DNA of 64,000 nt from Flagellimonas okinawensis (lineage in GTDB: Bacteria; Bacteroidota; Bacteroidia; Flavobacteriales; Flavobacteriaceae): assembly GCF_029194005.1 (NCBI RefSeq), contig NZ_JARFVA010000002.1:124001-188000 (forward strand), written 5' to 3'. A program made the translations under genes and the position numbers. Under the pieces are notes generated by a model that did not search any database, had not been told where the DNA came from, and saw only the letters and a list, made by a program, of their open reading frames with translations. Position 1 is the first letter of the stretch. The number at the start of each line of letters is the position of its first letter. Positions 14,478 to 22,119 of the stretch are shown one piece after another.

Positions 14478-16145
14478 TTAAACCTCGAGTTTAACCCTAA
14501 CTGCATAGTTTGAGTTATCTATCAATGCATTGAACTTCTCAAAGCTAGTTGCTTCACCACCTGGCAGCTTAATAACCATATTCCTGTCTGAGGGTTTAAT
14601 CAAAACCATTGCATCCAAAACATCTTTTAAAGTAACTTCCGTGAAGTTGGTTTTATCCATTTCCTTCAATACTTTCATACATCTATCATAATCCTCTTGA
14701 AAATCAACAGATAGGTTGTAATAACTTAAATCTGGATTTGGATGAACCAGATCAATACAACCCTTTTTGGAGTCTTTGTCATTTAATGCAATCCACGCAA
14801 GATATTCTGAAGTCAAAGGGTTTTCCATTTTTAAATACAACTTCCACAAATAAGAGATTGAATATAGTTCAACTCCCACACCTATTGGAACGTTATTCAC
14901 TTTTATATAATCTAGGTTTTCCTTTTTCATTAATTCGATCATTGATTCAAGAATCGTTGGATCAGATAAAGGATTATCACCGGTTACTCGGCATATTGTT
15001 CCTAACTTGTTTTCCAAAGCAAATGAAAGCATACGGTCTATAACAGAGACAGGGTGACCGGTAAATACATCTAAACCATTTTGTTTGCAAAAATCGACCA
15101 ATGGGTCATCTTCAGGTAGAAACGATGTGATTATAGAGGTCTTTTTAACACCCTTTGCAGTGGCAATTCGATGATAAAGGTCACTTATCAAAGTACCGTT
15201 ATGGAATGGCTTCAGTACCTTTTTTTTCAACCTTTTTGACTTTAAGCGTGCTATAATTCCAACCCCTACATTTTGCCTGTCAAAGGAATTGAAAACCTCT
15301 GTTAGATAATCATTCCCATAATCAGCTCTCTTAAGTTCTTTATTTAAATCACCATCCAATACTTTTTTAAATAGCACCCCTCTAAAAGCAGATTCGGAAG
15401 GTGTAGGGTGTTTTACTTTATTTCCAAGGGCCGTTTGGTAGTGAAGCACCTTTTGCACCATCGAAGCAAATTCGTGTGGGTAGAGCGATACCTGCCAATC
15501 ATAATGCCGGTCATTTCGGCTAATTGTAATGTGTTTTTCTAAAAACGCTGAACCTTTTGCCAGAGCCATTAAAGGTATTTCCACGGTATCCAGCGAATGA
15601 TCGGCAAGACCAATTTCACACCCAAATTCTTCCGAAATATAGTCCAGTGCATTCAGGTTTAAATCTTCTACCTCTGTAGGGTAATTACTAAAACCATGAA
15701 TAATGGCTTCTGTTTGATCTCCTAGGTAACTCAATGCCAATTTTATGTCCTGATAGGTAGCACATTGGGTTTCCAACAAAACTTTTATATCCTCTTTTTG
15801 AATATGTTTTAGAAAAGGAACATTAACTATATCTGTAGCATGAATCTTGAACAGATCAAGGTTATGGTCCAAACAAAAGTGAAATGATTTAATATCCAAG
15901 GCACATGGAATCATTTCAATATCTATTTCCCGGCAATAGGCTATTAGTTCTGCCCACTGACTTTGTTGAATGGCTATAGAAGCCACAATATCAAATCGTT
16001 CATAATCCGATGCGCAAAATGATTCCGGATCAAATATTTGAAATGTAAAATAATCTGCACCTGCACCTTTTGATGCCTTGGCAAGTTTCTTTAAATAGTC
16101 AATGTCTCCATTATGATTGGATGCACTCTCTGCAATTATTTTCAT
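14478..16145 (-). CDS. NeuB-like synthase fused to SpsF/NeuA-type nucleotidyltransferase
   Basis: A 555-residue two-domain protein. Residues 1 to about 245 are a NeuB-type TIM barrel (ASNHNGD at 8-14, FKIHATD, GLADHS near 198, LEKHIT near 217). Residues from about 295 on resemble SpsF/NeuA cytidylyltransferases (ARLKSKRLKKKVL near 300, RVTGDNPLSDP near 385). The C-terminal SAF domain of normal sialic acid synthases is missing. Several barrel positions differ from the canonical paralogue at 17199: KFQ is TFQ, ISTGM is LETQC, LHC is IHG, FSDHT is LADHS. These are residues expected around the PEP phosphate, so the reaction may differ. It may supply or activate a nonulosonic-type sugar. It follows the PtmE-like gene by 7 bases. 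Confidence 0.85.
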   Translation of the reverse strand: MKIIAESASNHNGDIDYLKKLAKASKGAGADYFTFQIFDPESFCASDYERFDIVASIAIQQSQWAELIAYCREIDIEMIPCALDIKSFHFCLDHNLDLFKIHATDIVNVPFLKHIQKEDIKVLLETQCATYQDIKLALSYLGDQTEAIIHGFSNYPTEVEDLNLNALDYISEEFGCEIGLADHSLDTVEIPLMALAKGSAFLEKHITISRNDRHYDWQVSLYPHEFASMVQKVLHYQTALGNKVKHPTPSESAFRGVLFKKVLDGDLNKELKRADYGNDYLTEVFNSFDRQNVGVGIIARLKSKRLKKKVLKPFHNGTLISDLYHRIATAKGVKKTSIITSFLPEDDPLVDFCKQNGLDVFTGHPVSVIDRMLSFALENKLGTICRVTGDNPLSDPTILESMIELMKKENLDYIKVNNVPIGVGVELYSISYLWKLYLKMENPLTSEYLAWIALNDKDSKKGCIDLVHPNPDLSYYNLSVDFQEDYDRCMKVLKEMDKTNFTEVTLKDVLDAMVLIKPSDRNMVIKLPGGEATSFEKFNALIDNSNYAVRVKLEV

Positions 16146-16152
16146 AAGGTTT

Positions 16153-17193
16153 TTAAAGGTGTTTGATAAATTCTTGTGCTTGTTTATAATCTACAGGTTT
16201 ACCAATATCGACCCAGAAACCAAGGATTGGTCTATAGATAAGTTTCATTTCTTCGGTAACCATTTCTTCCATTAAATCAGTGATGTCAAAAAATGAATTT
16301 TTTGGAATCCTATTTATCAGTTCTTTCTTTAAAATGTAAATCCCTGCATTGGAGTGATATACAAAAGTTGGCTTTTCTTTAAAACCTACTACTTGGCTTT
16401 CATTGGTATCAAATACAGCGTATGGTACATCAACCTTATATTCTGTAGACGAAACGATCATATCTGCCTTTTCCTTGAGCAAACTCAAATATAGGTCTTC
16501 AAAATCTACATTGGTAAACAAGTCACTGTTCATAAGTAGAATATGCTCCGTTTCAAATTTTGGGACAAGGGACAATGCGCCTGCAGTGCCTAAGGGCTTA
16601 TCTTCCCATACATACTCAATACTTATTCCCTTACTACTTCCATCTCCAAAATATTCCTGTATTTGGTCACCCAAATATTTTACTGAAATATAGATTTTCC
16701 TAATCCCAAATGAGATTAACCTATCAATATTATGTTCAATAATCGGCTTATCTCCCAATGGCAGCATTGGTTTGGGCTTTGTGTCTGTTAACGGGCTTAA
16801 CCTTTTCCCTCTTCCTCCGGCCATCAACATGCATTCCATGGGTAAAATTGATTTGGTTTTGTCCAAATCAACAATCCTAATAAGCCCTTTATTGTTATCT
16901 AATATTGGAAGGATTTTAATGTTCCTCTTCCTATATTCATCTAAGTTTATAAAATCTTTGTTGTTGTATTCAAAGGCAAAATTTTTATTGCAAACCTCCC
17001 CAATTTTTCTAGCTAAATCTTGATCATAAACCAATGACCTTCTTATGTCCCCGTCTGTTACCGAACCAATTATGGAGTTATCATCATCCTTAACAAAAAG
17101 AATTAATCTACTTACATCTCTGATTTCGTTAAGTTTTTGTAGGGCGTCAACTATCGTTTTTTCCTTGTGAATAACAATACTGTCTAGTTTCAT
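16153..17193 (-). CDS. CBS-domain sugar-phosphate nucleotidyltransferase (PtmE-like)
   Basis: A 346-residue protein with two CBS motifs (residues about 1-110) followed by a nucleotidyltransferase domain opening with LMAGGRGKRLSPLTDTKPKP near residue 122. This architecture is that of Campylobacter PtmE, which makes GDP-glucosamine for the legionaminic acid route, and related sugar-1-phosphate guanylyl- or uridylyltransferases. The frame is open to 17217, but ATG 17193 is preferred: it starts the CBS domain and lies 5 bases after the upstream stop. The neighbours are LegB-, LegC- and LegI-like, which supports a GDP-linked nonulosonate pathway. Base specificity is inferred, not seen. Confidence 0.82.
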   Translation of the reverse strand: MKLDSIVIHKEKTIVDALQKLNEIRDVSRLILFVKDDDNSIIGSVTDGDIRRSLVYDQDLARKIGEVCNKNFAFEYNNKDFINLDEYRKRNIKILPILDNNKGLIRIVDLDKTKSILPMECMLMAGGRGKRLSPLTDTKPKPMLPLGDKPIIEHNIDRLISFGIRKIYISVKYLGDQIQEYFGDGSSKGISIEYVWEDKPLGTAGALSLVPKFETEHILLMNSDLFTNVDFEDLYLSLLKEKADMIVSSTEYKVDVPYAVFDTNESQVVGFKEKPTFVYHSNAGIYILKKELINRIPKNSFFDITDLMEEMVTEEMKLIYRPILGFWVDIGKPVDYKQAQEFIKHL

Positions 17194-17198
17194 AAAGG

Positions 17199-18257
17199 TT
17201 AGTTTAACATGTCCCAACTTATTAAACCATCTTCTTCTATATCTTGATTCAATGTCCTTCCAACCACATATTTCATCTCATCTGGAGCTATTTTGGTACC
17301 CGGCCTCTTTGCAGTAAGGTCATCTTCGGTCAACCTGTGTCCTTTTTTTAAATCTCCATTTACAACAAGACTTCTTCTAAATTTTTTTCTTTTCTCCAGT
17401 TCTGCTTCCGATACTGTTCTTTCAAAGCTTCCCAATGAATTCACTATATTCTTGGATTCGGAACATATTGTTTTCATTTCTAAGGGGTCGGCTGATATTT
17501 CATGATCCCATCCCGGAAGGTCTTTATCTATAGTAAAATGCTTTTCTATTAAGCAACTACCAAGTGCTACAGATGCCAAAGGAATAGAAACTCCGATGGT
17601 ATGGTCAGAAAAGCCTACAGGAAGACCAAATGCTTTTTGTAGCATTGAGATATTATTCAAGTGAATATCTTCGTATTTAGGAGGATATATGGAGATACAG
17701 TGCAAAAGAATAATCCTTTCGTTGCCGACTTTGAGACAAGCATCAACTGCGCGTTGAATTTCAGCCAAATCAGCCATACCTGTGGAAATGATCATTGGTT
17801 TTTGATAAGCAGCAACATCTTGAATAAAGTCCAGATAGTTGATATCCATTGAAGCTATCTTAAAAAACGGCACGTCAAGATCATTCAATAGTCTTGCCTC
17901 TGCTTTAGAAAATGGGGAAGAGGCAAATGTTATTTGATTATCATCACAAAAGTTTTTGAGCTCTTTATGTTGTTCATTGGTAAGGGCATATTTTTTTACC
18001 ATTTCTTCCAATGACCCAAAATGCTTTTTCTTCGAATCATTGTAAACCTGATTTCGTTCATACTCCTCTTTAGCTATCAAGGATTTAGGGGTCCATGATT
18101 GAAATTTAACACAATCCGCACCTGCTTCTTTTGCAGAAATAATCATTTTTTTGGCAAGCTCCATATCCCCATTATGGTTTGCCCCTATTTCTGCAATGAT
18201 GTAAGGCTCTGCATTGTTTTTAATTTTTTTTCTAGAATCAAGTTGTATTTCTTTCAT
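17199..18257 (-). CDS. Sialic/legionaminic acid synthase, canonical NeuB/LegI type
   Basis: A 352-residue full-length NeuB-family synthase, which condenses PEP with a 6-carbon N-acyl sugar to give a nonulosonic acid. The barrel has AEIGANHNGD (23-32), KFQ, FFKIASMD, ISTGM, LHC.S.YP and GFSDHT in order, and a C-terminal SAF domain with RRSLVV and AKRPGTKI (residues about 290-350). All motifs that the fusion at 14478 lacks are intact here. The start overlaps the GT2 stop by 20 bases. With LegB, LegC and PtmE-like neighbours, legionaminic acid or a relative is the likeliest product; neuraminic or pseudaminic acid cannot be excluded. Confidence 0.92.
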   Translation of the reverse strand: MKEIQLDSRKKIKNNAEPYIIAEIGANHNGDMELAKKMIISAKEAGADCVKFQSWTPKSLIAKEEYERNQVYNDSKKKHFGSLEEMVKKYALTNEQHKELKNFCDDNQITFASSPFSKAEARLLNDLDVPFFKIASMDINYLDFIQDVAAYQKPMIISTGMADLAEIQRAVDACLKVGNERIILLHCISIYPPKYEDIHLNNISMLQKAFGLPVGFSDHTIGVSIPLASVALGSCLIEKHFTIDKDLPGWDHEISADPLEMKTICSESKNIVNSLGSFERTVSEAELEKRKKFRRSLVVNGDLKKGHRLTEDDLTAKRPGTKIAPDEMKYVVGRTLNQDIEEDGLISWDMLN

Positions 18258-19143
18258 TGGAAAAATTTATTTCTTCAAACCAAAATAGGTTTTCTATTTT
18301 ATTTAATTGTAAAATATGGCTTTTTAATCCCTCGTTATCATCTAAAACCTCCCTTTTGAACCTTTCATGTTCCAATATATACTTTTGTACAAAAGGAAAG
18401 TTCAACTTTTTCGCAAAAGCATATACTTTTCCTTTAATTTCCCAAAGGTTTACAAGCCCTTCTTTTGTGTATTTTGTTTTAAGGCCAAGTGTATTGGCCA
18501 AGTGTTGTCTATAAAACGTAGTGGCATCAATAAATTGACATTCCACCTTTTTTCCGAGACCAAAAATCTGCAGGTAAAAAATCCAGTCGAATAAATTTAA
18601 CTTCTTGTCCACTTGAATATCAAATGTCAGCAAATCTTTAGTAATGGCAGTATTACTTAATCCCAAAACATTTTGTCTCAATAAAAACTTTAAATCTATT
18701 TCAACTTCATGAAGTCTATTCCTCCATATTCTTTCCTTAATCAAACTTCCTTCCTCCGTAACTGCGGACAAATCGTTGACTACAATATTTGCACCCTCGT
18801 TAATTGCCTTGGCCGATAATTCTATTCGATTGTTGGAAAAATAGTCGTCTGTATCTGCAAAGACAATAATTTTATAACCGGCCAACTTTATGTATTCTAT
18901 CAGTTCAACCCTAATTTCTGATGGAGTTTTATTCTCGACATCAATGACCTTGAAACTAATTTCATTAAAAGTCCGCAAATGTTTTTTCAATTCGATATGA
19001 TTACAACCATCATTGAAAAGAATCAAATCAAAATTTTTCTCAGTCTGTTGACTAAGTGAACTTAAAAAAACATCAAAAAACCTAAGGTTATTTGGAAATA
19101 TTACCGATGCTACTGCAATTTCAAAGTTACATTCATCAATCAT
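18238..19143 (-). CDS. Glycosyltransferase family 2
   Basis: A 301-residue GT-A glycosyltransferase. The first strand and nucleotide pocket (VASVIFPNNLRF) lie near residue 10, and the metal-binding DxD region is FADTDDYF near residue 98. The frame extends to 19188, but ATG 19143 is preferred because it starts the GT-A fold and lies 11 bases after the stop of the acetyltransferase gene. It probably adds one sugar of the repeat unit at the inner membrane. The C-terminal 100 residues are helical and not diagnostic. Donor and acceptor unknown. Confidence 0.82.
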   Translation of the reverse strand: MIDECNFEIAVASVIFPNNLRFFDVFLSSLSQQTEKNFDLILFNDGCNHIELKKHLRTFNEISFKVIDVENKTPSEIRVELIEYIKLAGYKIIVFADTDDYFSNNRIELSAKAINEGANIVVNDLSAVTEEGSLIKERIWRNRLHEVEIDLKFLLRQNVLGLSNTAITKDLLTFDIQVDKKLNLFDWIFYLQIFGLGKKVECQFIDATTFYRQHLANTLGLKTKYTKEGLVNLWEIKGKVYAFAKKLNFPFVQKYILEHERFKREVLDDNEGLKSHILQLNKIENLFWFEEINFSNERNTT

Positions 19144-19154
19144 ATAGGCAAACC

Positions 19155-19793
19155 TTATGAAATTCTTTGAGCTGGATTTCCTGCCCAAACCTGAGAATTT
19201 GGCACATTTTTATTTACCACTGACCCTGCACCAATCACAGATTCTCTTCCCACCTGTACACCTTGAACCATAACAGAGTTGGCACCAATAAATGTACTGT
19301 TATCTACTTTTACGTCGCCAGACAAAACTGTTCCAGGAGCTATATGGCAATAGTCGCCGATACAACAATCATGCTCAATTATTGCACCTGAATTAATTAT
19401 TGCGCCAACTCCAATATTACAATTGCAATTAATAATTGCATTGTTAAGAACAACTGTTCCATCTGCAACTGAGCTATTGTTAGAAACATATGCGGTTTTT
19501 GCAACAATTGCCGGTAGCTTTCCACTCTGGGATTTAATTAACCCAAAAAGCTTTATACGTATTTTTGGTGATTTTATCTGGCCTACGGTAACAACAAATG
19601 AATGCCCCATTGAAATATACCTGCTGATATCATCATCGTTGCCAATTATTGGGACATCTTGAACGAACTTCTCTTGTGTAGAGTCAAAACAAGGGTCCAA
19701 TACCCCAACAATATTATATTCAGGCAGACCTTTGATTACTTCTATCACAGATTTACAGTGTCCACCTCCACCAACCAATATTAAATTTTTCAT
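19155..19793 (-). CDS. NeuD/PglD-like sugar O- or N-acetyltransferase
   Basis: A 212-residue protein with an N-terminal Rossmann-like sugar-binding part (LVGGGGHCKSV at residues 5-15) and a left-handed beta-helix from about residue 95, ending in AGNPAQRI. This is the NeuD/PglD/LegH family, which uses acetyl-CoA to acetylate an amino sugar. The family catalytic His lies in EHDCCIGDY near residue 140. It overlaps the LegC-like aminotransferase by 4 bases and so most likely acetylates the 4-amino group that LegC introduces. Confidence 0.88.
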   Translation of the reverse strand: MKNLILVGGGGHCKSVIEVIKGLPEYNIVGVLDPCFDSTQEKFVQDVPIIGNDDDISRYISMGHSFVVTVGQIKSPKIRIKLFGLIKSQSGKLPAIVAKTAYVSNNSSVADGTVVLNNAIINCNCNIGVGAIINSGAIIEHDCCIGDYCHIAPGTVLSGDVKVDNSTFIGANSVMVQGVQVGRESVIGAGSVVNKNVPNSQVWAGNPAQRIS

Positions 19794-20932
19794 ACTACAC
19801 TACTTGGGATATTAACTACCCTGCTTTCCAACCATTCGGAATTCTCCAAATTTGTCTTTTGTGCGTTTTGGAACATTTTTACCCTGCTCATCAACTTCCA
19901 AATTGGCCTGGTCATAACACCTTGGTCATTTGTTTCTTGAAGAAATTTATTCCGCTCTTCCAACGAATTCAGTACAACTGCATTTAACCAATGATTTGGC
20001 ACGGAGTCCTGAGATCCTTGTAAAAATTGTATGGATTTATTTTTAAAAAAAGATTTATACTCATCTGCCAACTGTTTTTTACTTTTTAAAAACTCAGGCA
20101 AAACTTCCATTTGTGCACAACCCAAGGCGGCATTGATGTTGGGCATCCTATAATTGTAGCCCACCATGTCGTGGTCATATTCCCATGGGTGACTAATTTT
20201 GGCAGTGGTTGTAATATGCTTTGCTTTTTTTGCCAAGATCTCATCATCGGTAACAATCATGCCCCCTCCGCCTGTTGTTATTATTTTATTGCCATTAAAG
20301 CTAAAGGCTCCCAAGCATCCAAACGTTCCTGTGTGCCTATCCTTGTAATAACTTCCAAGCGATTCTGCTGCATCTTCAACTAATGGTATATTATATTTTT
20401 CACATACTGCAACAAGTCCGTCAATATCTGCAGAAAACCCGAAAGTATGCATCGGAACCACAGCCTTTATTCGCCTATTTGTGCTTTTATTAAAGCATTC
20501 ATTGTTTCGAACTTCTGCATTCCTACGCAAGAAACCTTCTAGTTTTTCCACAGAAAGCCCTAGAGACTTCTTGTCAACATCCACAAAAACTGGATGAGCA
20601 CCTATATAGTTAATTGCATTGCAAGTAGCAATAAATGTAAGCGGCTGTGTTATGACCTCATCGCCTTTGGATACACCAGAAAGAATTAACGATATATGTA
20701 GTGCCGCCGTTCCATTAACAGTGGCAATTGCATATTTGGAACCGGTAAACTCAGCAACCTGTTTCTCAAATTTGTCTACGAAAGCACCAACACTAGAAAC
20801 AAATGTGGAATCTATACACTCTGAAACATACTTTTTCTCATTACCAATAAATTTTGGGGCATGAAGCGGAATAAAGTCTTCTGTATTATGTAGCTTTTTA
20901 ACAAATGCTATTACATCATCGTATTTTCCCAT
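19790..20932 (-). CDS. LegC-like sugar aminotransferase (DegT/DnrJ/EryC1)
   Basis: A 380-residue PLP-dependent aminotransferase of the DegT/DnrJ/EryC1/StrS family. The PLP region has TVNGTAALH near residue 72, PLVEDAAESLGS near residue 185, and the Schiff-base Lys in FNGNKIITTGGGG near residue 215. Length and order match LegC-type enzymes that aminate a 4-keto-6-deoxy sugar nucleotide. It overlaps the dehydratase gene by one base upstream and the acetyltransferase by 4 bases downstream, a dehydratase-aminotransferase-acetyltransferase set that makes a diacetamido-trideoxyhexose. Confidence 0.9.
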   Translation of the reverse strand: MGKYDDVIAFVKKLHNTEDFIPLHAPKFIGNEKKYVSECIDSTFVSSVGAFVDKFEKQVAEFTGSKYAIATVNGTAALHISLILSGVSKGDEVITQPLTFIATCNAINYIGAHPVFVDVDKKSLGLSVEKLEGFLRRNAEVRNNECFNKSTNRRIKAVVPMHTFGFSADIDGLVAVCEKYNIPLVEDAAESLGSYYKDRHTGTFGCLGAFSFNGNKIITTGGGGMIVTDDEILAKKAKHITTTAKISHPWEYDHDMVGYNYRMPNINAALGCAQMEVLPEFLKSKKQLADEYKSFFKNKSIQFLQGSQDSVPNHWLNAVVLNSLEERNKFLQETNDQGVMTRPIWKLMSRVKMFQNAQKTNLENSEWLESRVVNIPSSVV

Positions 20933-22119
20933 TACATTTTATTATCGAGATACTTTCCTGTTTCTAAATGATTAAAACCCGGAATCATTTCATTAAATAA
21001 ATCAACTATTTCTTGCTTTTCCCATTTTTTCCGTGCCTTCAATTTTTGAATTTGCTCAGAGAAAAAATTGAGCTTTTCTTCATTGTAGTCAGGTTCATTT
21101 TTGATTATTCCCAAGTTTTCAAATTTTGCCAAATCTAAAATTTCTTGAGTAGTAAAAAACTCTTCAAAATCTTTTTCTCCGGTTGTATCGCTAGAAACAA
21201 ATAAGCAGGGCCATTTTCCTTGCTCGGGGAGTTTTCCAACGAGCTCTCTTGCCTGATCTTCACTTTCACAGATAAAAGCCTCAAAACCTAGTTCTTTTAA
21301 ATACCGTACAGCAATATCCGAAAAGGTAATTAAGTGCAGCTCTTCACTTAGTTTTGGAAAAAAGATGTCCCTGTTTTCACCAAAAATACAAGACATTAAA
21401 CATAACTCCCCAGATTCTTTGGGAGTAACAAAATATCTCTTAACATCATTTGGCGCCACTATAGGCTGTTGTTTTTTTATACGTTGATCAAAGCCGTGGA
21501 GCAATGAACCATCGGAAAAGGCCACATTGGCAAATCTTGCTGTTGAGATTTCTATTTGTTTACTTCTGCGCATTAGGAACATTTCCATAATTCTTTTGGA
21601 AGCTCCCATCATATTAACAGGATTCGCTGCCTTGTCCGTAGAAACACAAAAATACTTTTTCGTATTCTTAGCGATGGCTTGTTTTAAAGTTTTTTCGGTA
21701 TTGATAATATTCACATTGATCATCCTCATCAATGTAAATGGATCCTTTTCACTCCTAACATGCTTAAGAGCCGATAAATTTAAGACATAGTCGTACTTTC
21801 CGTCATTTTCGATAAATACATCATACTCTTCCGAAGAAATGTCCAGTGCAAAAGTTCTGAAATCACCATCAATATAACCATATGAACTTCGGATGTCTCT
21901 CACCAATTCCACCAAGTTGTTTTCACTAATATCAACAACATGTAGTTTCTTCGGTTTTCTTTTAAAAATTTCCTTGACCGTTGCCTGCCCTATAGATCCC
22001 GCTCCACCTATTACCAAAAAAGATGAAGAGGAAACAATTTGGCTTAATTCAATCTCATGCGTATTGATATCATTTGTAAACAGTTCCTTGCTTCTTCCTA
22101 TTAAACCTAATGTTTCCAT
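20932..22119 (-). CDS. LegB-like sugar-nucleotide 4,6-dehydratase
   Basis: A 395-residue NAD-dependent dehydratase of the CapD/LegB group. The N-terminal extension of 30 residues is followed by VIGGAGSIGQ near residue 37 and the catalytic STDKAANPVNMMGASK near residue 158, where Met stands in the place of the usual Tyr as in the WbpM/CapD type. These enzymes convert UDP- or GDP-GlcNAc to the 4-keto-6-deoxy sugar. It is the first gene of the long leftward glycan operon. No TAnnTTTG promoter could be found in the 174 bases upstream. Confidence 0.88.
   Translation of the reverse strand: METLGLIGRSKELFTNDINTHEIELSQIVSSSSFLVIGGAGSIGQATVKEIFKRKPKKLHVVDISENNLVELVRDIRSSYGYIDGDFRTFALDISSEEYDVFIENDGKYDYVLNLSALKHVRSEKDPFTLMRMINVNIINTEKTLKQAIAKNTKKYFCVSTDKAANPVNMMGASKRIMEMFLMRRSKQIEISTARFANVAFSDGSLLHGFDQRIKKQQPIVAPNDVKRYFVTPKESGELCLMSCIFGENRDIFFPKLSEELHLITFSDIAVRYLKELGFEAFICESEDQARELVGKLPEQGKWPCLFVSSDTTGEKDFEEFFTTQEILDLAKFENLGIIKNEPDYNEEKLNFFSEQIQKLKARKKWEKQEIVDLFNEMIPGFNHLETGKYLDNKM

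What the first reader, a model, noticed from the sequence alone, without database searches (positions are those of the whole stretch)
14478..16145. NeuB-like synthase fused to an SpsF-type nucleotidyltransferase, with an altered PEP site
Seen: one frame of 555 codons holds a NeuB-type barrel and an SpsF/NeuA-like domain; the SAF domain is absent. Against the canonical paralogue 1 kb upstream, KFQ is TFQ, ISTGM is LETQC, LHC is IHG and FSDHT is LADHS. Known: in NeuB enzymes the Lys of KFQ and the Ser residues of these motifs hold the PEP phosphate, and an Arg from the SAF domain reaches the active site. Inference: the barrel may have lost PEP condensation or gained another substrate, with product activation built into the same chain. 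It could define a new step in nonulosonic-type sugar synthesis.
Basis: partly seen in the sequence, partly recalled or inferred. Interest (0 to 1): 0.75.

Follow-up and report, generated by a model that had tools for sequence, protein, structure and literature searches.

The report
Rewired sialic-acid synthase fused to activator
One bacterial protein joins a sialic-acid-synthase-like domain, whose phosphoenolpyruvate pocket has been rebuilt with new fixed residues, to a domain predicted to load a finished sugar onto CMP; the same pairing recurs in bacteria and archaea and likely marks an uncharacterised step in making sialic-acid-like sugars.

Summary
The fusion is real: window 14478-16145, minus strand, 555 aa, NeuB barrel plus SpsF-type cytidylyltransferase. 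The quoted substitutions are fixed: across 120 relatives all 25 pocket positions checked are at least 95% conserved (mean 0.998, against 0.66 for 237 other barrel positions). One correction: the SAF domain is truncated, not simply absent; about 37 residues remain, with an Arg that appears to match Arg314 of Neisseria NeuB. The barrel belongs to a separate NeuB branch ('NeuB2', my label; 75 of 157 barrels), found in bacteria and archaea: Thr110 and Cys182 lost in 75 of 75, Ser213 in 74, an acid added to the PEP pocket in 74 (0 of 82 canonical), metal histidines kept. SpsF is fused or close in 72 of 72 loci. In Bacteroidota LegC clusters, NeuA is in 0 of 4 with NeuB2 and 26 of 30 without, but NeuA coexists in 25 of 72 loci overall. 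Best reading: a CMP-nonulosonate synthetase carrying a PEP-independent, metal-dependent sugar-reshaping domain; the barrel's reaction is unproven. New variant of a known kind.

The parts
14478..16145 (-). 555-aa fusion: NeuB-fold barrel (NeuB2 branch) + SpsF-type cytidylyltransferase
   Evidence: AlphaFold2 model mean pLDDT 93.3, pTM 0.81
15393..16145 (-). residues 1-251: TIM barrel with re-lined PEP pocket (T34, C81, K100, H102, E125-T126-Q127, G151, S153, A181) and kept metal histidines H183 and H205
15282..15392 (-). residues 252-288: probable shortened SAF remnant with R273 (inferred equivalent of Arg314)
14568..15278 (-). residues 290-526: SpsF/KdsB-like cytidylyltransferase domain with invariant R300, S303, R305, K309, D390, D481, D485
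16153..17217 (-). CBS-domain nucleotidyltransferase (PtmE-like; name recalled)
   Evidence: PF00483 + PF00571
17199..18257 (-). canonical NeuB (LegI-like, 'NeuB1') with KFQ, SSP, KIAS, ISTGM, KRPG
   Evidence: PF03102 + PF08666; motifs
18238..19188 (-). GT2-like protein with D-x-D-D motif; its family sits in loci without an Epimerase_2 (LegG) gene
19155..19793 (-). NeuD/PglD-type acetyltransferase
   Evidence: TIGR03570 over cut-off
19790..20932 (-). LegC-family aminotransferase
   Evidence: TIGR04181, 562.8 bits, cut-off 420
20932..22119 (-). PF02719 nucleotide-sugar dehydratase (LegB-like, 395 aa; role inferred)

Best explanation
The 555-residue protein fuses a NeuB-fold barrel, whose PEP pocket is re-lined with invariant new residues, to an SpsF-type cytidylyltransferase domain; the barrel has likely lost PEP condensation and would instead reshape the nonulosonic acid (NulO) predicted to be made by the neighbouring NeuB1, which the SpsF half is then predicted to activate with CTP. 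Shown: fusion, conserved pocket, conserved metal-site histidines, partnership with SpsF. Inferred: (1) no PEP chemistry, because an acid enters or a lysine is lost where PEP's charges would sit; (2) the SpsF half makes the CMP-sugar; (3) the barrel's step is a metal-dependent isomerisation of the sugar just before activation, most plausibly a retro-aldol/aldol at C3-C4 that uses an enolpyruvate-like state instead of PEP. Step 3 is the least certain.
For: Pocket: 25 of 25 positions at least 0.95 conserved (mean 0.998) against 49 of 237 other barrel positions (mean 0.66); none of 20,000 permutations reaches this. Branch-wide: T110 lost 75/75, C182 to G 75/75 (G in 2/82 canonical), S213 lost 74/75, acid at 110, 129 or 154 in 74/75 NeuB2 against 0/82 NeuB1; K53 and K129 both present without such an acid in 0/75 against 80/82; H215, H236 and D247 kept 157/157. 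The three subfamilies change charge by different routes: fused K53T with S154E 26/26; split K129 to D/E 12/12, and 120/120 of listed homologues; distant T110 to D/E 36/37. SpsF: fused in 27, within 200 bp in 43, within 3.5 kb in 2, of 72 loci with NeuB2 (query held both domains). A barrel-only search of 395 Bacteroidota genomes matched 38; by my profiles 7 hold a NeuB2, all 7 with SpsF fused or adjacent and NeuB1 near, and 31 only NeuB1. NeuA swap: among 34 Bacteroidota clusters with LegC and NeuB1, NeuA is in 0 of 4 with NeuB2 and 26 of 30 without, Fisher p 0.0015; NeuA is in 0 of 23 fused-family loci L003-L025. In the window's genome (99.98% complete) the other PF02348 hits are a strong one on C11 (187 bits, taken as KdsB; not tested further) and a weak one in a frame that looks MobA/MocA-like (by inspection). 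Optional add-on: of 11 Bacteroidota genomes with the NeuB1 type that accompanies the fused family, 6 show SpsF without NeuB2 and 2 the fusion, as expected for a tailoring step.
Against: No assay, ligand or product. NeuA coexists with NeuB2 in 25 of 72 loci, so the NeuA swap is not general; there the pair would have to make a second activated sugar. NeuB2 with LegC is only 4 clusters (one, L120, holds the same NeuB2 protein as L076), and L151 shows an SpsF-like gene without NeuB2 or NeuA, so SpsF alone may account for the swap. In the distant subfamily K53 (35/37), K129 (37/37) and Arg314 (37/37) are still present, so a changed PEP use is not excluded there. In the fused family Ser at 184 is not unusual: 55 of 82 canonical barrels have it. 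The split subfamily has lost Arg314 (M/L in 12/12; 119 of 120), so the sugar site is not uniform. The branch rests on FastTree with support values 0.936 and 0.671 on either side of the midpoint root; IQ-TREE timed out.
Confidence: 0.45

Rival explanations
1. The barrel is a non-catalytic NeuB-derived scaffold or sensor that docks the cytidylyltransferase on the NeuB1 synthase or gates it by binding the sugar.
For: NeuB1 lies in the same locus in 68 of 72. NeuB1-SpsF fusions also exist (L211, L212, L213), so coupling synthase and activator in one chain recurs. SpsF occurs without NeuB2 in sister clusters.
Against: The interior pocket and metal ligands are nearly invariant, which a pure scaffold would not need. 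Coexistence with NeuA (25 of 72) is not explained.
Confidence: 0.25
2. The barrel is still a PEP-dependent synthase, with altered pocket and a different aldose.
For: K129 and the metal site are kept in the fused family; the distant subfamily keeps K53, K129 and Arg314. The barrel's listed fold matches are NeuB, DAHP and KDO8P synthases, all PEP enzymes (PEP use recalled).
Against: Of the six PEP-surrounding positions listed in PMC7371886 (section 7), 110, 131, 132 and 182 hold residues in the fused family that canonical barrels rarely or never have (0, 0, 2 and 2 of 82); 129 is kept and S at 184 is common. An acid is added in 74 of 75.
Confidence: 0.18
3. The barrel replaces the missing hydrolysing 2-epimerase LegG/NeuC of the legionaminic pathway.
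For: The window genome has no Epimerase_2 (PF02350) and no PseG match, although LegC, NeuD and NeuB1 are present.
Against: In the LegC sample 3 of 4 clusters with NeuB2 keep an Epimerase_2 gene (L133, L137, L147; 27 of 30 without NeuB2 have one), and L123 lacks it without NeuB2. The absence follows the GT2-like gene instead (0 of 2 with it, 30 of 32 without; Fisher p 0.011).
Confidence: 0.04
4. Ordinary decaying duplicate of NeuB carried along with SpsF.
For: SAF domain shortened; PEP ligands lost.
Against: Mean pocket conservation of 0.998 over 120 relatives.
Confidence: 0.02

Closest known systems
NeuB / LegI / PseI nonulosonate synthases (PF03102 + SAF; 1xuu, 8h2c)
   Different: PEP side re-lined, acid added, SAF truncated, fused to a cytidylyltransferase
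SpsF / KdsB-type cytidylyltransferases (PF02348; 6oew; Bacillus subtilis SpsF)
   Different: carried behind a NeuB-like barrel; B. subtilis spsF is a gene of its own in spsABCDEF (same passages)
Leptospira 6ncs NeuB-like and 6oew cytidylyltransferase
   Same: best PDB sequence matches to the two halves, and 6ncs the best fold match
   Different: two separate chains; 6ncs keeps KFQ, HC and SDH motifs
KDN-9-phosphate pathway of Bacteroides thetaiotaomicron (synthase BT1714, PMC6200933 passage; phosphatase structure 3e81, protein name BT1713 recalled)
   Same: of 23 fused-family loci L003-L025, 22 hold a NeuB1 and 21 a HAD phosphatase, whose representative from L011 matches 3e81 at E 2e-57
   Different: no call showed what the Bacteroides CMP-KDN synthetase looks like; the window's own cluster is of LegC type and shows no such phosphatase
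SpsF-like domain fused to an aldo-keto reductase, suggested to replace an absent NeuA
   Same: bifunctional SpsF fusion proposed to stand in for NeuA (PMC7371886, passage)
   Different: different partner domain

Membership tests
NeuB-type nonulosonate synthase | NeuB-family barrel | tested here: met
NeuB-type nonulosonate synthase | two metal-binding His (215, 236) | tested here: met
   157 of 157 barrels, this one included
NeuB-type nonulosonate synthase | residues around PEP (53, 110, 129, 131, 132, 154, 182, 184, 213) | tested here: not met
   in this protein only K129, and S184 which is common in canonical barrels, are within the usual range; roles of 53, 154 and 213 towards PEP recalled, the other six from PMC7371886
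NeuB-type nonulosonate synthase | C-terminal SAF domain with Arg314 | tested here: inconclusive
   no Pfam SAF, but a probable short remnant with R273
NeuB-type nonulosonate synthase | PEP-dependent condensation | not testable with these tools
   needs an assay
SpsF/KdsB-type cytidylyltransferase | CTP_transf_3 fold | tested here: met
SpsF/KdsB-type cytidylyltransferase | conserved nucleotide and metal motif residues | tested here: met
   R300, S303, R305, K309, D390, D481, D485 at 1.0 in 120; their roles recalled
SpsF/KdsB-type cytidylyltransferase | CMP transfer to a NulO | not testable with these tools
   needs an assay
LegG/NeuC hydrolysing 2-epimerase | Epimerase_2 (PF02350) | tested here: not met
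   not among the Pfam hits of the protein at E 0.01

The most novel reading that the evidence does not exclude
NeuB2 is an unrecognised enzyme branch, present in bacteria and archaea, that turned the PEP-condensing NeuB barrel into a PEP-free, metal-dependent nonulosonate isomerase (for example a C4 epimerase working by retro-aldol/aldol); paired with or fused to SpsF it makes CMP-activated sugars not yet described, while databases name members legionaminate synthase.
Probability: 0.25. Interest if true: 0.82.

Novelty: new variant of a known kind. Interest (0 to 1): 0.62.

Why it matters
Genome-based predictions of sialic-acid-like sugars lean on NeuB genes (as in PMC7371886, which assigns pathways from NeuB sequences). 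If this branch does not condense PEP, clusters with NeuB2 would be misread, and a recurrent enzyme step in surface-sugar synthesis would be missing from the maps. Some members are named N,N'-diacetyllegionaminate synthase in public data. It would also be a directly testable case of a PEP enzyme changing its chemistry.

Tried and rejected
Rejected: NeuB2 as stand-in for LegG, because L133, L137 and L147 keep Epimerase_2 beside NeuB2. Rejected: chance substitutions or decay. Considered: heterodimer of NeuB2 with NeuB1 through the swapped SAF domain; not tested, since only single chains can be folded. Led nowhere: a genome-contig scan with the single sequence (none); IQ-TREE (timed out, so only FastTree support is given); a search for BT1713/BT1715 in papers (nothing on point among the 15 listed of 22); a look-up of the 2008 KDN paper (not held). 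Literature: in the listings over the CC-licensed PMC library (some listings capped) I saw no title or abstract start describing this fusion or branch. I read passages of PMC6200933, PMC7439481, PMC7371886 (plus its section 7), PMC6795526 and PMC3438082, and no paper whole. Most subscription journals are not held, so absence in print is not shown.

Limits of the counts: the 120 relatives are the best listed of 387, so nearer relatives are favoured; the 26 fused barrels in the tree include two seen twice (L081 = L015, L082 = L019, judged from contig lengths and motifs); three more fused proteins (L026, L027, L030) fall in the distant group; L120/L202 hold the same NeuB2 protein as L076. The profile models used for cluster labels were built from the same loci, with score thresholds of my choosing. 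The 39 LegC regions were 4-20 kb, some cut by contig ends; five in which my models found no NeuB1 were left out of the 34. The 'NeuB1 type' sample of 11 has a HAD phosphatase in 6 only, and two of its regions (L205, L212) also hold a NeuA-type gene.

Full report
What is there. The frame at 14478-16145 lies on the minus strand and encodes 555 aa. Pfam gives NeuB at residues 23-245 and CTP_transf_3 at 297-431, with no SAF hit. It follows, on the same strand, a PF02719 dehydratase (20932-22119), a LegC aminotransferase (562.8 bits, cut-off 420), NeuD, a GT2-like protein, a canonical NeuB with SAF and a CBS-domain nucleotidyltransferase. The window's genome (G000, 99.98% complete) has two NeuB-family matches, both here.

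The substitutions are fixed. I aligned P0001 with 119 full-length relatives. Mapped on Neisseria NeuB numbering, K53 is T, T110 is C, G131 is H, S132 is A or G, S154 is E, G156 is Q, C182 is G, N184 is S and S213 is A; K129, E25, Q55, D214, H215, E234, H236 and D247 are kept. The 25 pocket positions average 0.998 conservation, the other 237 barrel positions 0.66. PMC7371886 (section 7) lists 110, 129, 131, 132, 182 and 184 as the positions around PEP. Of these, 110, 131, 132 and 182 carry residues seen in 0, 0, 2 and 2 of 82 canonical barrels; 129 is kept; Ser at 184 is common in canonical barrels too, 55 of 82. The roles of 53, 154 and 213 towards PEP are recalled.

A wider branch. A genome-contig scan with the family alignment gave 78 loci from Bacteroidota to archaea (the best 80 of 135 matches were kept). 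Besides the fused form (mostly Bacteroidota) there are stand-alone barrels with an SpsF gene beside them. A FastTree of 157 barrels splits at the midpoint root into 75 'NeuB2' (26 of the fused core family, 12 split Bacteroidota, 37 distant, three of them also fused) and 82 canonical barrels including Neisseria NeuB; support values are 0.936 and 0.671, and IQ-TREE did not finish. In NeuB2, C182 is G in 75/75, T110 is lost in 75/75, S213 in 74/75 (L044 keeps it), and an acid is present at 110, 129 or 154 in 74/75 (not in L043), against 0/82 canonical. The three subfamilies do this by different substitutions. In the split group an acid at 129 is present in 120 of 120 homologues, the best listed of 304.

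Partners. Of 72 loci with NeuB2, SpsF is fused in 27, within 200 bp in 43 and within 3.5 kb in 2; NeuB1 is in 68; a NeuA-type gene is in 25. These loci were found with a query holding both domains, so the first count is biased. A barrel-only search of 395 Bacteroidota genomes matched 38. By my profiles 7 hold a NeuB2 (own, G011, G277, G163, G227, G124, G169), all 7 with SpsF fused or adjacent and NeuB1 near, and 31 only a NeuB1; G006, known, fell below this cut-off. The fused form itself is patchy: 3 of 378 genomes of the window's family carry it, and one same-genus genome does not.

What it replaces. I took the 39 other Bacteroidota clusters with a LegC gene over cut-off and read up to 20 kb around each. 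Of 34 with both LegC and NeuB1, NeuA is in 26 of 30 without NeuB2 and 0 of 4 with it (p 0.0015). Epimerase_2 (LegG) is in 3 of 4 with NeuB2 and 27 of 30 without. So in this setting the NeuB2-SpsF pair stands in for NeuA, not LegG; L151, with an SpsF-like gene but neither NeuA nor NeuB2, suggests that SpsF alone may do so. A second sample came from the NeuB1 type that accompanies the fused family, found in 11 of 395 genomes: 2 carry the fusion, 6 show SpsF without NeuB2 and 3 carry NeuB1 fused to SpsF; 6 of the 11 have the HAD phosphatase of a KDN-9-phosphate-type pathway. SpsF therefore seems able to act without NeuB2, and the barrel looks like an add-on.

How it likely works. The SpsF half has its motif residues at 1.0 conservation, and is the only evident candidate for CMP-NulO synthetase in the genome: the other PF02348 hits are a strong one on C11, taken as KdsB, and a weak MobA/MocA-like one (by inspection). 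For the barrel, loss of PEP ligands with gain of acid and His, while metal and other sugar-side residues stay, suggests a metal-held sugar without PEP. A tailoring step before activation would explain three facts together: it is optional, its pocket is strongly conserved within the two subfamilies measured, and in other lineages NeuA is kept beside it (25 of 72), as if two sugars were activated. The chemistry (retro-aldol/aldol epimerisation) is my inference and unproven. Scaffolding and altered PEP use remain live rivals.

Novelty. Public names seen for members include 'N-acetylneuraminate synthase family protein' and 'N,N'-diacetyllegionaminate synthase'. The listings I saw named no paper describing the branch or fusion. 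The parts are known kinds; the branch and its pairing are a new variant.

Noticed in passing
window 18238-19188 (minus): GT2-like protein (D-x-D-D motif) between NeuD and NeuB1. In the LegC sample 0 of 2 clusters with its family have Epimerase_2, 30 of 32 without it do (p 0.011); none of 15 loci labelled with it holds Epimerase_2. PF02350 is absent from the whole window genome and from those of L028 and L051, but present elsewhere in eight others searched. It may stand in for LegG.
   Followed up: partly
L211:7869-9614, L212:9847-11640, L213:9247-11118: A different fusion: canonical NeuB1 joined to SpsF (581-623 aa).
   Followed up: partly
L044, L060, L040, L052, L033, L038, L041, L065: Recurring set of radical SAM/SPASM protein, NeuB2, SpsF and a GT2 + CTP_transf_3 fusion, often near NeuA and NeuB1.
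   Followed up: no
L035:16312-17340, L064:9920-10939: Third odd NeuB type with N at 129, D or E at 53 and a GQH-MA motif in place of HC..YP, next to an SDR-family gene.
   Followed up: no
NeuB1 beside fused relatives, e.g. L008:11659-12693: Arg314 is Ser (LSPG motif) in 20 of 82 NeuB1, those beside fused relatives; would fit a substrate without N-acetyl group.
   Followed up: partly
L008, L016, L017, L048, L133 and others: DUF386 (YhcH/NanQ-like; anomerase role recalled) genes occur beside NeuB2/SpsF.
   Followed up: no
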